Shown here: in pieces, positions 14,607-46,937 of the stretch | How the letters are laid out: every line of letters begins with the position of its first letter | Position numbering within the stretch: position 1 is the first letter of the stretch | NCBI GenBank assembly: GCA_003339605.1 | Contig: QOVW01000066.1 | Location: 1 to 48,539 of the forward strand | Reading direction: 5' to 3' | From: Spirobacillus cienkowskii | Lineage (GTDB): Bacteria > Bdellovibrionota_B > Oligoflexia > Silvanigrellales > Silvanigrellaceae | DNA: 48,539 nucleotides | Notes under the pieces: generated by a model | The model's database searches: none | Seen by the model: the letters and a program-made list of their open reading frames with translations, nothing else | What the model was told of the DNA's origin: nothing | Position numbers and translations under genes: made by a program

Positions 14607-15725
14607 ATGACTACAAAACGCAATTATTACGATATATTACAAGTATCAAAAACAGCTTCAGCCGATGAAATAAAAAAAGCTTATCGTAAGCTTGCTGTGC
14701 AATACCATCCCGATCGCAATCCTGGAGATAAAGCCGCTGAAGAAAAATTTAAAGAAGCAGCTGAGGCTTATGAAGTTCTTATTGATTCTGAAAAAAGACA
14801 ACGTTTTGATCAGTTTGGTCATGCAGGAGTGAGTGGAGCTGGCTTTGGTGGACAGGGCTTTGGAAATGTTGATGATGTTTTCGAGCATTTTGGTTCTATT
14901 TTTGAAGATCTTTTTGGTGTCAGAGGGCGCAAAAAAGGTGGAGGAAGCAGAGCGCGCAAGGGAGCCGATTTACGGTATGATTTAAAAGTTTCTTTTAAAG
15001 AGTCTGTATTAGGAACAGAAAAAAAAGTTCAAATTGCAAGAAAAATTTCTTGTCAAAGTTGCGATGGCTCAGGAGCTGCCAAGGGAACATCGCCCGTTAC
15101 GTGTTCGACATGTCATGGACAAGGTCAAGTTGGTATTCAACAAGGTTTCTTTACTTATGCCTCAGCGTGTATTGACTGCAATGGCTCTGGTAAAAAAATT
15201 GAAACCCCATGTTCTGGATGTAAAGGTTCGGGTTATCAAGTTAAATCATCAAATATCAATGTTAAAATTCCTGCAGGTATTGATACCGGCATGCGCTTAA
15301 GAGTGTCTGGCGAAGGTGAGGGAGGTTTTAACGGAGGTTCTGCTGGAGATCTTTACGTATTTATTGAAGTCGAAGCGGATCCTCAGTTTAGGCGCGAAGA
15401 ATTTGACTTAATTTATAATTTAAAAATTGGCGTTGCACAGGCTATTTTAGGGACAGAAGTATTAATTGACTGTTTTGAAGAGCAGCCGCGTAAAATTGAA
15501 GTTCCTGCTGGAATTCAGCCAGGACAGCGTTTGGTTGTTCAGGGTGCTGGCATACCTAAATTAGAAAAATATGGCAGAGGTAAGGGAGATCTTGTTATTG
15601 AAGTGACTGTTGAAATTCCAACTAAAATAAATAAAGAAGCAGAAGAGCATCTCCGTGCATTTGCACAAAAAGTTGGGCAACATGTAAAAAATAACAACGG
15701 TTTTTTTGATAAAATATTTGGATAA
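14607..15725 (+). CDS. dnaJ: Chaperone protein DnaJ
   Basis: DnaJ is the J-domain co-chaperone that stimulates DnaK ATPase activity and presents unfolded proteins. At 372 residues it is a full type I DnaJ. The J domain (1-70) has HPD at about 36-38 in YHPDRNPGDKAAEEKF. A Gly/Phe-rich linker contains GAGFGGQGFGNVDDVFEHF. Four CxxCxGxG zinc repeats (CQSCDGSG, CSTCHGQG, CIDCNGSG, CSGCKGSG) occupy about residues 148-210, followed by the substrate-binding C-terminal domains. There is no dnaK or grpE next to it. The next gene, cysS, begins six bases later, so the two are co-transcribed. Confidence 0.97.
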   Translation: MTTKRNYYDILQVSKTASADEIKKAYRKLAVQYHPDRNPGDKAAEEKFKEAAEAYEVLIDSEKRQRFDQFGHAGVSGAGFGGQGFGNVDDVFEHFGSIFEDLFGVRGRKKGGGSRARKGADLRYDLKVSFKESVLGTEKKVQIARKISCQSCDGSGAAKGTSPVTCSTCHGQGQVGIQQGFFTYASACIDCNGSGKKIETPCSGCKGSGYQVKSSNINVKIPAGIDTGMRLRVSGEGEGGFNGGSAGDLYVFIEVEADPQFRREEFDLIYNLKIGVAQAILGTEVLIDCFEEQPRKIEVPAGIQPGQRLVVQGAGIPKLEKYGRGKGDLVIEVTVEIPTKINKEAEEHLRAFAQKVGQHVKNNNGFFDKIFG

Positions 15726-43879: not shown

Positions 43880-45196
43880 ATGTTAAAAACTGTTGCGAAA
43901 GGGATTTTCAAATCAAATAGTAAAGAAACAGTTGATTTTACTGAAAGAATTATACGAGCTTATTATAATAATCAAAAAAACACTGAAAAAGAAAATTTTC
44001 AAGCAAAAATATCACAAGAAAACTATGTTTCGAATACAAATAATTCTGATGATTATGCAAATCACAAATTAAATTTAAATTCAGAATTACAAGAAAATCA
44101 TGATTCACCTTTTTTCGATTTGCCAAATATCGATGAATCAGTTTCAAATGATCTAGAACATCCTTATGGTTATCAAGCAGCAGAAAGAAAAAATTCTCAA
44201 GAAGAAAAACCCGTTAAAGCTAATAAAGATGTTAAAGTATCGCAATCAAAAAAAAGAAATCCCCAAATTATTTCGATTGGAGGGGGTAAAGGTGGTATTG
44301 GAAAAAGCTTTATTTCTGCAAATATTTGTGTGAGATTAGCCTCTCTCGGATATAAAGTTTCTGTAGTTGATTTAGATTTAGGAGCGGCAAATCTTCATAC
44401 TTGTCTTGGTGTACCAACACCTCGCATTGGAATCGCTGATTTTATTCATGGAAATGTTTCGTCCTTAGAAGAAACTGGAATTAATTGTTGCCTTCCAAAT
44501 TTAACATTATATGGTGGCGGGCAGGAATTTTGGCAACAAGTTAAACCACAAAGTTCGCAAAAAATTAAGTTAATTACAAGACTGCAAGAATTGGATGCTG
44601 ATTTTGTAATATTAGATTTAGGTGCTGGAACTCATGTTCATACCCTAGATTTTTTTATTTTTTCTCATGGTGGTATCTTAGTTGTTGCACCTGAACCAAC
44701 AAGTATTGAAAATGCGTATGTATTTATGAAGAGCATTTTATATAGAAAAATTCAAAGTATTTGTAAAGCATTTGATATTGAAGAATCTATTGAAAAAGAA
44801 CTTTTAAATCAAATCTCAAACCCTAAAAACTCAGAAACACCATTTTCGCAGTTGGTGAATTTTTCACAAAAATATAGTGAAGTTGGGAAACAAATTAAAG
44901 ATATGATTGAAGCAACAAATATTGGTATTATTATGAATCAGGTAAGAACAAAAGAAGATAAAAATTTAGGTGAATCGATGTCTGTTATTTGTAATCGTTA
45001 CTTTGGATTTACATCTCAATTTTTAGGCTCTATTAAATATGATGATGCAGTATGGAAATCAGTACGAGTTAAACGCCCCTTAGTACTTGATTATCCTTTA
45101 TCTACAATCGCTGTTAATATAAATAATATTACCGATAAATTAACAAAAATTTTTATGCAAGATGTTAAAAAAGATAATTTAGAAAAAGCTGGATAA
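43880..45196 (+). CDS. MinD/FlhG-like P-loop ATPase
   Basis: From the ATG at 43880 (AAGGTGG upstream) the product is 438 residues. The frame is open further back, to a TTG at 43832, but the internal ATG has the better site. An N-terminal extension of about 120 low-complexity, Asn/Gln/Glu-rich residues precedes the ATPase. The deviant Walker A is IGGGKGGIGKSFISANI, followed by VVDLDLGAANLHTCLG and ADFVILDLGAGTHVHTLDFF. These are hallmarks of MinD/FlhG proteins, which place division or flagellar machinery through ATP-dependent dimerisation. The C-terminal part includes an insertion after LYRKIQS. No flagellar genes are near. Its partner gene begins four bases later. Confidence 0.82.
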   Translation: MLKTVAKGIFKSNSKETVDFTERIIRAYYNNQKNTEKENFQAKISQENYVSNTNNSDDYANHKLNLNSELQENHDSPFFDLPNIDESVSNDLEHPYGYQAAERKNSQEEKPVKANKDVKVSQSKKRNPQIISIGGGKGGIGKSFISANICVRLASLGYKVSVVDLDLGAANLHTCLGVPTPRIGIADFIHGNVSSLEETGINCCLPNLTLYGGGQEFWQQVKPQSSQKIKLITRLQELDADFVILDLGAGTHVHTLDFFIFSHGGILVVAPEPTSIENAYVFMKSILYRKIQSICKAFDIEESIEKELLNQISNPKNSETPFSQLVNFSQKYSEVGKQIKDMIEATNIGIIMNQVRTKEDKNLGESMSVICNRYFGFTSQFLGSIKYDDAVWKSVRVKRPLVLDYPLSTIAVNINNITDKLTKIFMQDVKKDNLEKAG

Positions 45197-45200
45197 AATT

Positions 45201-45929
45201 ATGAATGTTGCAAATAAAAAAATAAATCCGTTAGAAATTCTAGATATAAAAGACGGTGATTTATCAATTAATAAAATAGAAATAGCATATCGTAGTAAAA
45301 GAAAATATTTAGACGAAAAATTTCAAGGAAAACAACAAGAGGGATTGGTTTATTATGATCAATTAGAAAATGCTTTTCAAGAATTAATTAATTATATAGA
45401 ACAAGATGCTTCACCAGATAATGAAGATGTTGTCATTTCTGCATCTTTGCTACCTATAGCAAAACCAAATCCTGTTAAAACTAGTTATAATAAAGAAGAT
45501 AATATAATTTATATGAAAAAAAATTATGAAAATCCTAAAAACTTTTATAAAAATCAGCAAAGTTTTTCTAAATCTCATTCTGATACAAATTTAAATAATC
45601 GAGTTAGAGCTTACAATGCAGAAAATCAAGAAAATATAAAAGAGTTAGAGGATATTATATCAACATACGAAAAAATTTCTGGAAAAATTCTTAAAATATT
45701 AAGAGAAAAAATGAATGTAAATTTAGATGAGATGTCTAGTAAAATTAAAGTAAGTAAAAATTATCTTGAAGCAATTGAAATAGACTCATTTGATAAATTG
45801 CCCGCAGAGGTTTATGCAAGAGGTTTTTTTAATTCTTATTTAAATTACTTAGGTCTTGACAGAAAGGATCTTGTTGAAGCATTAATGGATCTCTATAGAG
45901 GCCAAAAAAGGTTGATTAAAAAAAGGTAA
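45201..45929 (+). CDS. J-like and RodZ-type HTH domain protein
   Basis: This 242-residue protein has two recognisable ends. Residues about 9-65 (NPLEILDIKDGDLSINKIEI, then YYDQLENAFQEL) follow the J-domain pattern, but the HPD motif is replaced by LDE, so it should not activate DnaK in the classic way. A Lys/Asn-rich linker follows. Residues about 165-235 (KILKILREKMNVNLDEMSS and KNYLEAIEIDSFDKLPAEVY) match the helix-turn-helix of RodZ-type proteins. No membrane helix or RodZ periplasmic domain is present. It lies four bases after the MinD-like gene, so the two likely act together, perhaps in polar or envelope organisation. Confidence 0.7.
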   Translation: MNVANKKINPLEILDIKDGDLSINKIEIAYRSKRKYLDEKFQGKQQEGLVYYDQLENAFQELINYIEQDASPDNEDVVISASLLPIAKPNPVKTSYNKEDNIIYMKKNYENPKNFYKNQQSFSKSHSDTNLNNRVRAYNAENQENIKELEDIISTYEKISGKILKILREKMNVNLDEMSSKIKVSKNYLEAIEIDSFDKLPAEVYARGFFNSYLNYLGLDRKDLVEALMDLYRGQKRLIKKR

Positions 45930-45968: not shown

Positions 45969-46937
45969 ATGGATAGCATTACGCAACTCATTGTAACAGA
46001 TGAATTTAATAGTGAAAGATTAGATGTTTTTATTACTCGTGTTTTTGATGTGATTCCAAGTCGTTCTTATTCTAATAAATTAATATTAAATAAAAAAGTA
46101 AAAGTTGATAACAAATTTCAAAAGCCTTCGTTTAGACTTAAAACAAATCAAATAGTTGAAGTAGACTTGTCTTTTGTATTTGATAAAGAAATTAGTCCAC
46201 AGGCAGAAGATATTCCTTTAAATATTTTATTTGAAGATGAACATGTAATTGTTATAGATAAACAGGCTGGAATGGTGGTTCATCCAGGAGCTGGTGTGAG
46301 TTCTGGCACTCTAGTCAATGCATTGCTTAATCGCTGTGGTTGCGCATTGCCTTCACTTGGCAGTTCGGCACGGGCAGGAATTGTGCATAGACTTGATAGA
46401 GATACCAGCGGAGTTATGGTTGCAGCAAAGACGCAACTCGCTTTAACCAATTTATCAAAACAGTTTGCAGAACATAAACAAATACGAAAGTATCATGCAA
46501 TTATTTTTGGTCAATTGCAGCCGTTAGAGGGTAAAATAGAAACTTGGCATGGAAGAGATACTAAAAATAGAATTAAGTTTTCTGTACAAAAAGAAGGTAG
46601 AGGAAAAATTGCTATTTTAAATTATATTACACACGAAATATTACGTAGTGGATTGTTTTCTTTGGTTGAGTGTCAGCTGCATACAGGAAGAACGCATCAA
46701 ATAAGAGTTCAATTAAGTTATTTAAACCATGGTATTCTTGGTGACGCTTTGTATTCAAAAATTCCCCCTTATATTATATCAGATAAAAAACTTTTTTCAT
46801 TAGTTTCAAAAAATGCTAACAGACAAATGTTACATGCAGTTCATTTGGGTTTTGATCATCCAATTACCGGAGAAGCATTAAATTTTAATTCTTCTTATCC
46901 TGTGGATTTTTTTAATATGCTAAATTTGATAAGATAA
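45969..46937 (+). CDS. rluD: RluD-type ribosomal large subunit pseudouridine synthase
   Basis: This 322-residue enzyme converts uridines in 23S rRNA to pseudouridine. An N-terminal S4-like RNA-binding domain (about 10-75, including SRSYSNKLILNKKVKVDN) precedes the RluA-family catalytic domain. There VIVIDKQAGMVVHPGAG and GIVHRLDRDTSGVMVAAKT carry the catalytic Asp (HRLDRDTSG), and later LVECQLHTGRTHQIRVQLSY and HAVHLGFDHPITGE. The match is to RluD or RluC; RluD is favoured by length and the VHPGAG motif. It is 39 bases downstream of the HTH gene. Confidence 0.9.
   Translation: MDSITQLIVTDEFNSERLDVFITRVFDVIPSRSYSNKLILNKKVKVDNKFQKPSFRLKTNQIVEVDLSFVFDKEISPQAEDIPLNILFEDEHVIVIDKQAGMVVHPGAGVSSGTLVNALLNRCGCALPSLGSSARAGIVHRLDRDTSGVMVAAKTQLALTNLSKQFAEHKQIRKYHAIIFGQLQPLEGKIETWHGRDTKNRIKFSVQKEGRGKIAILNYITHEILRSGLFSLVECQLHTGRTHQIRVQLSYLNHGILGDALYSKIPPYIISDKKLFSLVSKNANRQMLHAVHLGFDHPITGEALNFNSSYPVDFFNMLNLIR

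What the first reader, a model, noticed from the sequence alone, without database searches (positions are those of the whole stretch)
43880..45929. MinD-like ATPase paired with a J-like/HTH protein lacking HPD
Seen: an ATPase with a long Asn/Glu-rich N-terminal extension, four bases before a protein with a J-type helix pattern (HPD replaced by LDE) and a RodZ-type HTH. Known: MinD/FlhG ATPases set cell-pole or mid-cell position, and RodZ HTH domains bind the cytoskeleton. Inferred: this may be a two-protein positioning system with a soluble adaptor. I know of no described pair with this exact domain mix.
Basis: partly seen in the sequence, partly recalled or inferred. Interest (0 to 1): 0.5.

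Follow-up and report, generated by a model that had tools for sequence, protein, structure and literature searches.

The report
Conserved MinD-like ATPase and partner pair
Two neighbouring genes, one for an ATP-driven switch protein of the kind that positions machinery in bacterial cells and one for a partner built from a disabled chaperone-helper domain plus a cytoskeleton-type domain, travel together across several bacterial phyla but have no known function.

Summary
An FlhG/FleN-type MinD-like ATPase (43880-45196) lies four bases before a soluble protein (45201-45929) with an HPD-less J-like domain and a RodZ-type HTH.

The linkage is old and wide. A scan selecting on the ATPase alone kept 80 loci, 77 with the partner directly downstream; titles include Bdellovibrionota, Myxococcota, Nitrospirota and SAR324. 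Across 58 genomes of the window's phylum, 41 of 43 ATPase-bearing genomes have it adjacent, and no full J+HTH hit appears in the other 15. It follows in the 30 best of 77 Myxococcota matches. In two genomes the ATPase is followed by RluD instead.

HPD is absent from the J position in 88 of 88 partner rows. The RodZ aromatic pair that contacts MreB is kept in 83 of 88. The ATPase is a paralogue of the genome's own FlhG, with a helical insertion that FleN and the genome's FlhG lack.

I read the pair as a dedicated ATPase-adaptor switch, possibly cytoskeleton-linked. The pairing is well supported; cargo and MreB contact are inferred. PilT-type pili are unlikely as required cargo; flagellar FlhF correlates but is not required. 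No description was seen in the literature searches run.

The parts
43880..45196 (+). MinD-like (FlhG/FleN-type) deviant Walker A ATPase, 438 aa
43880..43912 (+). Residues 1-11 MLKTVAKGIFK: basic, amphipathic-looking N-terminus shared by most rows of the window's order; candidate membrane-targeting helix (weak inference)
   Evidence: model pLDDT about 36 here
43913..44260 (+). Residues 12-127: variable polar linker, N/E-enriched (one helix predicted at 15-49, most of the rest low confidence)
44279..44308 (+). Deviant Walker A GGGKGGIGKS (residues 134-143) with signature lysine K137
44369..44398 (+). Residues 164-173 DLDLGAANLH, region aligned with the FleN DADLGLANVD stretch (switch I by recall)
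44612..44632 (+). Residues 245-251 LDLGAGT, aligned with FleN VDTAAGI (switch II by recall)
44690..44719 (+). Residues 271-280 PEPTSIENAY, family signature (own FlhG reads PEPTSLADCY)
44771..44917 (+). Residues about 298-346: helical insertion absent from FleN and the genome's FlhG, candidate partner-docking site (inferred)
45201..45929 (+). J-like/HTH partner protein, 242 aa, no transmembrane segment
45219..45413 (+). HPD-less J-like domain (residues 7-71)
45309..45317 (+). L-D-E (residues 37-39) at the HPD position
45432..45455 (+). VISASLLP (residues 78-85), short motif shared within the window's order, in a small predicted beta element of low confidence
45678..45869 (+). RodZ-type HTH_25 domain (residues 160-223)
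45813..45827 (+). Y205 and F209, equivalents of the RodZ aromatic pair that contacts MreB
45969..46937 (+). RluD-type pseudouridine synthase: frequent neighbour, not part of the core pair

Best explanation
A dedicated two-protein ATPase-adaptor switch. Shown by sequence and comparison: the first protein is a ParA/MinD-superfamily ATPase of the FlhG/FleN branch with its motifs intact, paralogous to the genome's own FlhG; the second is a soluble protein with an HPD-less J-like domain and a RodZ-type HTH that is inherited with the ATPase. Inferred: the ATPase cycles between an ATP-bound dimer and an ADP-bound monomer; the J-like domain is a docking module for the ATPase (perhaps through its family-specific helical insertion) and not an Hsp70 co-chaperone; the HTH ties the complex to a structure in the cell, most plausibly MreB, because it keeps the MreB-contact aromatics. 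In the window's order the ATPase also has a basic N-terminus that may attach it to the membrane. Output: spatial or temporal control of an envelope-linked process whose cargo is unknown.
For: ATPase motifs nearly invariant. Best relatives are FleN/FlhG by profile (4.8e-32) and by fold (FleN Z 29.8, rmsd 2.1, 245 aligned). A separate FlhG sits beside FlhF in the same genome; FlhG matches reach 103 bits as stretches and 139 as whole ORFs, against at least 430 for the family in the 16 relatives that have it (the profile was built from some of these) and at least 280 in the genome-contig loci; separate clades. Linkage: 77 of 80 loci selected on the ATPase alone, 14 of 14 relatives found with the partner as query, 41 of 43 phylum genomes, 30 of 30 fetched Myxococcota loci; median gap 8 nt over 75 loci. 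No full J+HTH hit in the 15 phylum genomes without the ATPase (E<=1e-12). Co-divergence: r 0.94, partial 0.76 with RluD controlled, against 0.17 and 0.42 for the other two pairs. HPD at the J position in 0 of 88 rows and 0 of 30 Myxococcota loci; 4 of 4 DnaJ-type ORFs picked by score alone have it, as does the window's DnaJ. Aromatic pair kept in 83 of 88; its role in MreB binding is reported in PMC4047632 and PMC6946637 (passages). HTH best VIA match is RodZ of the MreB-RodZ complex (Z 12.3, rmsd 2.0, 79 aligned).
Against: No interaction, localisation or phenotype data. The RodZ aromatics may be kept for folding: they also occur in membrane RodZ-like proteins (L015, L016). Two Silvanigrellales genomes keep the ATPase without the partner, and a second, weaker ATPase match in G028 has no partner hit beside it. 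In the window's order the J-like loop motif is lost and one relative (G011) has no J domain, so the J domain's contact may differ there. Five Myxococcota rows have Ile at the second aromatic position. MreB is over cut-off in all 18 relatives tested, so co-occurrence with MreB is uninformative. Foldseek gave no match at E<=0.001 for the partner model (best 2.5e-3), whose domains are confident but whose pTM is 0.48. The amphipathicity test did not flag the recalled E. coli MinD C-terminus used as yardstick (44% of shuffles reach it), nor one of the eight family peptides (L038), so it says little about membrane binding.
Confidence: 0.42

Rival explanations
1. Transcriptional control pair, like FleN acting on FleQ: the ATPase modulates a DNA-binding HTH partner.
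For: FleN is the closest solved relative of the ATPase and forms complexes with FleQ (molecule names, titles of 7ejw and 8p53). The partner has an HTH fold whose lower-ranked matches include DNA-binding repressors and antitoxins.
Against: The HTH is of the RodZ type (HTH_25; RodZ first at Z 12.3 and its S. aureus relative at 11.3, other HTH rows at 8.4 or less). RodZ's HTH is reported not to bind DNA (PMC6946637, passage). No conserved operator was sought across the family.
Confidence: 0.22
2. A second flagellar placement or number regulator, a duplicated FlhG with its own helper.
For: In 58 phylum genomes the ATPase and FlhF co-occur (both 39, ATPase only 4, FlhF only 5, neither 10; Fisher p 3.8e-5, not corrected for ancestry, FlhF counted at 115 bits or more).
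Against: Nine exceptions, two of them ATPase-bearing genomes of 92% completeness without FlhF (G026, G038). Outside the phylum 8 of 19 pair-bearing genomes have FlhF above the family cut-off (9 at my 115-bit line; completeness of these genomes is not told). No flagellar genes were recognised beside the pair among the neighbour families annotated or read, and a bona fide FlhG exists beside FlhF.
Confidence: 0.18
3. Hsp70 co-chaperone recruiting DnaK to a MinD-like client.
For: The N-terminal domain is homologous to J domains (DnaJ Pfam cut-off exceeded in 5 of 6 relatives).
Against: HPD, needed for Hsp70 stimulation (recalled, established knowledge), is absent at the J position in all 88 rows and in the 30 fetched Myxococcota loci.
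Confidence: 0.04
4. Positioning of type IV pili.
For: ParA-type ATPases and polar pili occur in these lineages (general knowledge).
Against: All 8 genomes searched of the window's genus lack PilT at E<=1e-80 yet keep the ATPase, and all 15 ATPase-less phylum genomes have PilT.
Confidence: 0.03
5. Genome-order coincidence: two genes kept together by a conserved operon with RluD without a functional link.
For: RluD lies in 62 of 80 loci, so some of the synteny is operon-wide.
Against: The pair persists where no RluD is found in the locus (for example L042, L058, L081, L082, L107, each with about 6 kb downstream), and co-divergence with RluD controlled remains.
Confidence: 0.08

Closest known systems
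FlhG/FleN (MinD-like flagellar ATPase)
   Same: Fold, P-loop, PEPTS motif region; best solved match
   Different: Separate clade; 68-72 residues with extra helices where FleN has about 22 and the genome's FlhG a similarly short stretch; partner is J-HTH, not FlhF or FleQ; not beside flhF
MinD of the Min system
   Same: Superfamily, deviant Walker A, fold (Z 26.6)
   Different: Far below the MinD equivalog cut-off (63 vs 213 bits); no MinE-like neighbour noticed (not searched for by model)
ParA/MinD systems with dedicated ATPase partners (PomZ-PomX/PomY)
   Same: ATPase plus activating-partner logic (PMC7993993 and PMC13170346, search listing only)
   Different: Partner architecture here is J-like plus RodZ HTH; I did not compare the PomX/Y sequences
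RodZ
   Same: HTH_25 domain with the two MreB-contact aromatics
   Different: HTH at the C-terminus, no transmembrane segment, J-like domain in front
Tim16/Pam16 (J-like, HPD-less)
   Same: Fold of the J-like domain (2guz_B, Z 8.4, rmsd 2.2, 61 aligned; tied with J domains); that chain B is Tim16 and lacks HPD is recalled
   Different: Mitochondrial import motor; no sequence relationship claimed
Bdellovibrio orphan ParA1/ParA2 (Bd1326, Bd2331)
   Same: Orphan ParA-like ATPases in a related predator (PMC7186360, abstract and passages)
   Different: Neighbours described there (a BolA homologue, proteins of unknown function) are not described as J-HTH or RluD; identity with this family was not tested

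Membership tests
ParA/MinD superfamily ATPase | Deviant Walker A KGGxGK[S/T] with signature lysine | tested here: met
   K137, K142 invariant or nearly so
ParA/MinD superfamily ATPase | ATP-dependent dimerisation and hydrolysis | not testable with these tools
   needs biochemistry
FlhG/FleN | Closest fold and sequence within the superfamily | tested here: met
FlhG/FleN | Encoded beside flhF | tested here: not met
   FlhF and FlhG proper are at G000:C61; the window pair is followed by RluD
FlhG/FleN | Groups with FlhG in a tree | tested here: not met
   separate groups in a midpoint-rooted FastTree, 51 family rows (support 0.685) and 14 FlhG rows (support 1.0; two rows are the same protein)
MinD (Min system) | Reaches MinD equivalog cut-off | tested here: not met
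   63.3 bits against 212.9
RodZ | HTH_25 domain | tested here: met
   1.2e-17; 2wus_S Z 12.3
RodZ | Single transmembrane segment after an N-terminal HTH | tested here: not met
   best 19-residue hydropathy 0.72 in the window protein against 2.74 in the membrane HTH_25 protein of the same genome; family maximum 1.61 over 76 rows
RodZ | MreB binding | not testable with these tools
   contact aromatics Y205/F209 present, binding not measured
J-domain protein (Hsp40) | HPD motif | tested here: not met
   0 of 88 rows at the J position; 4 of 4 DnaJ-type controls picked by score have it
J-domain protein (Hsp40) | J fold and homology | tested here: met
   fold (J rows Z 7.3-8.4); Pfam DnaJ above cut-off in 5 of 6 relatives, but no hit in the window protein
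A named NCBIfam family for either protein | Hit over curated cut-off | tested here: not met
   none shown for the two window proteins (best 25 of 31 shown for the ATPase) or for six proteins of three relatives

The most novel reading that the evidence does not exclude
A previously undescribed class of ParA/MinD spatial-control system, spread over Bdellovibrionota, Myxococcota, Nitrospirota and SAR324, in which an HPD-less J-like domain has been turned from an Hsp70 co-chaperone into the dedicated partner of a FlhG-like ATPase, and a soluble RodZ-type HTH couples that ATPase cycle to the MreB cytoskeleton.
Probability: 0.22. Interest if true: 0.78.

Novelty: new variant of a known kind. Interest (0 to 1): 0.55.

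Why it matters
ParA/MinD ATPases are told apart by their partners, and this partner architecture (a J-like domain without HPD, plus a RodZ HTH) was not seen described in the literature searches run. The pair is kept across lineages whose names include known predators and social bacteria, and the ATPase was found in 71 of 97 Myxococcota genomes, so it can probably be tested in lineages with working genetics. If the HTH does bind MreB, it would link a Min/Par-type ATPase cycle directly to the actin-like cytoskeleton.

Tried and rejected
Type IV pilus positioning: disfavoured by the distribution of PilT. Hsp70 co-chaperone: disfavoured. Flagella-only role: correlated but with exceptions both ways. 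MreB co-occurrence: uninformative; in G010 (83% complete) the only hit is weak. Bdellovibrio orphan ParA1/ParA2 as the same gene: not established. Promoter/terminator scan: promoter-like hits at chance level, no terminator-like site. Literature: in searches no listed title or abstract start described this pair (two returned nothing; others listed only the top 12, 10 and 10 of 56, 15 and 15 papers); the library lacks most subscription papers, so this is not proof of absence.

Weak or mended points. The three DnaJ sequences aligned had been chosen because they contain HPD and only locate the column; the control picked by score alone is (4 of 4). One script read the window ATPase out of frame; its figures with the window were discarded and redone. 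Rows dropped before the distance comparison: L044, L051, L075, L105 (uncertain partner start), L048 and L089 (cut), and loci without RluD; 56 loci plus the window remained. Ten of 80 loci were not placed in the neighbour clustering. Negative gaps come at least partly from uncertain start codons. In one search most rows cover only the HTH; the J-like rows are tied among themselves (Z 7.3-8.4, a range that call's own note calls common), so no J subfamily is claimed. The amphipathicity test did not flag its yardstick.

Full report
What is there. At 43880-45196 is a 438-residue ATPase and at 45201-45929 a 242-residue protein, four bases apart, followed by RluD at 45969. The genes upstream look like terminal-oxidase genes (read from the translations; the nearest matches COX4_pro just below its cut-off).

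The ATPase. Pfam gives CbiA (2e-15) and no NCBIfam model shown reaches its cut-off (a MinD-equivalog score of 63 bits against 213). The profile of 11 homologues finds FleN first and FlhG-type chains next among solved chains (4.8e-32 for FleN), and the predicted model matches FleN (Z 29.8, rmsd 2.1, 245 aligned) and FlhG (28.6) ahead of MinD (26.6) and Soj (about 24-25). It is not the genome's FlhG: that protein sits beside FlhF at G000:C61. FlhG matches reach 103 bits as stretches or 139 as whole ORFs, where the 16 relatives that have the family score at least 430 (the profile was built from some of these). The two fall in separate groups of a tree (51 and 14 rows). The family has 68-72 residues between its EN.Y and NQxR motifs in the 49 of 51 sequences where both were found, where FleN's aligned region spans about 22; the model puts three helices there. 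The long N-terminal extension is not general: 68 of 78 relatives have 60 residues or fewer before the P-loop. Most rows of the window's order share a basic N-terminal stretch (L039 and G011 do not). Seven of eight such peptides exceed most shuffles in amphipathic moment (reached by 1-3% of shuffles), L038 does not, and neither does the recalled E. coli MinD C-terminus used as yardstick, so membrane binding is only a guess.

The partner. The C-terminal half is a RodZ-type HTH: HTH_25 1.2e-17, best VIA match the RodZ chain of the MreB-RodZ complex (Z 12.3, rmsd 2.0, 79 aligned); Foldseek alone ranked the S. aureus relative 3fym first at E 2.5e-3, with no match under 0.001. Residues Y205 and F209 align with the aromatic pair that MreB binding needs in RodZ (F60/Y64 in E. 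coli, Y66/F70 in Chlamydia Ct009; passages of PMC4047632 and PMC6946637). Both positions are aromatic in 83 of 88 rows, the other five having Ile at the second. The window protein has no transmembrane segment. The N-terminal part is J-like by model; the window protein itself has no Pfam DnaJ hit, but 5 of 6 relatives tested exceed the DnaJ cut-off. HPD is at the J position in 0 of 88 rows (one row, G011, has no J domain; two rows carry HPD elsewhere) and in 0 of 30 Myxococcota loci. Four of four DnaJ-type ORFs picked by score alone have it, as does the window's own DnaJ. Outside the window's order the loop carries a conserved replacement, close to D-S-x-A-x-Y-S-L; its tyrosine is present in 76 of 88 rows and missing in the 12 rows of the window's order (at least two of these twelve are the same genome twice).

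Linkage. With the partner as query, 14 of 18 relatives had a match, and 14 of 14 of those best-match loci have the ATPase upstream and RluD downstream. In the window's phylum 43 of 58 genomes have the ATPase (E<=1e-45) and 41 of these have the partner adjacent, read from coordinates; in five of the 41 only one of its two domains was scored (G045 J; G007, G010, G011, G038 HTH). G028 has a second, weaker ATPase match with no partner hit beside it. The two genomes lacking the partner (G001 and G008, which gave the same hits as the genomes of L039 and L038) show no J+HTH hit elsewhere. Of the 15 genomes without the ATPase none has a full J+HTH hit at E<=1e-12. In Myxococcota 71 of 97 genomes have the ATPase; the 30 best of 77 matches were fetched and 30 of 30 have the partner, while the weaker matches were not read. 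RluD is found in 62 of 80 loci; the pair persists without it, for example in L042, L058, L081, L082 and L107. Over 57 rows with all three genes, ATPase and partner distances correlate at 0.94 and at 0.76 with RluD controlled; the other partial values are 0.17 and 0.42. Without the window's order (53 rows) the figure is 0.70. The permutation test there (0 of 500) does not model ancestry.

What it might serve. FlhF and the ATPase co-occur in the phylum (39 both, 4 and 5 single, 10 neither; p 3.8e-5 uncorrected), where I counted FlhF hits of 115 bits or more as true and lower ones as FtsY-like, a line drawn after seeing the scores. Exceptions exist both ways, and 8 of 19 pair-bearing genomes outside the phylum exceed the FlhF cut-off (9 at 115 bits). 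PilT is absent at E<=1e-80 from the 8 genomes searched of the window's genus, which keep the ATPase, and present in all 15 ATPase-less genomes, so PilT-type pili are unlikely to be the required cargo. MreB is general.

Reading. The pairing, the paralogy to FlhG, the loss of HPD and the retained RodZ aromatics are shown at sequence level. That the J-like domain docks the ATPase, that the HTH holds MreB, and that the unit positions or times an envelope process are inferences; I put the whole chain at 0.42 and the existence of a dedicated functional pair at about 0.85. B. subtilis RodZ binding MinJ of the Min system (PMC5778138, abstract) is a precedent for contact between RodZ and Min proteins, not evidence for this pair.

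Known or new. No listed title or abstract start in the searches described the pair. The ATPase class and both partner domains are known; the combination and its spread are, as far as searched, not. I rate it a new variant of a known kind.

Noticed in passing
L020 (G000:C3:27831-28037) and L019 (G006): The membrane-bound HTH_25 (RodZ-like) protein in these two genomes has Asn and Leu where RodZ has the two MreB-contact aromatics (aligned by eye), while the soluble J-HTH keeps them; RodZ-like proteins of other families (L015, L016) have Phe/Phe. The J-HTH could carry the MreB contact in this genus.
   Followed up: partly
L038 and L039, between the ATPase gene and RluD: The J-HTH gene is missing in two Silvanigrellales genomes that keep the ATPase; the L039 ATPase branch looks long in the tree.
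   Followed up: partly
G081, G083, G108, G121, G143, G146: Six of 97 Myxococcota genomes hold a second, weaker copy of the ATPase (209-251 bits); six others have only a weaker match (197-266 bits: G084, G085, G097, G099, G103, G164). Their neighbours were not read.
   Followed up: no
L028:8286-8738: In G011 the partner gene is short (151 aa) with an HTH and no J-like domain.
   Followed up: no
window 45432-45455: A short motif close to V[VI][SP]AxL[LI]P after the J-like domain was found in the four proteins of the window's order that were searched and in none of the other 72.
   Followed up: partly
window 14607-15725: A classical DnaJ with HPD and the DnaJ central and C-terminal domains, used as an in-window control.
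   Followed up: yes
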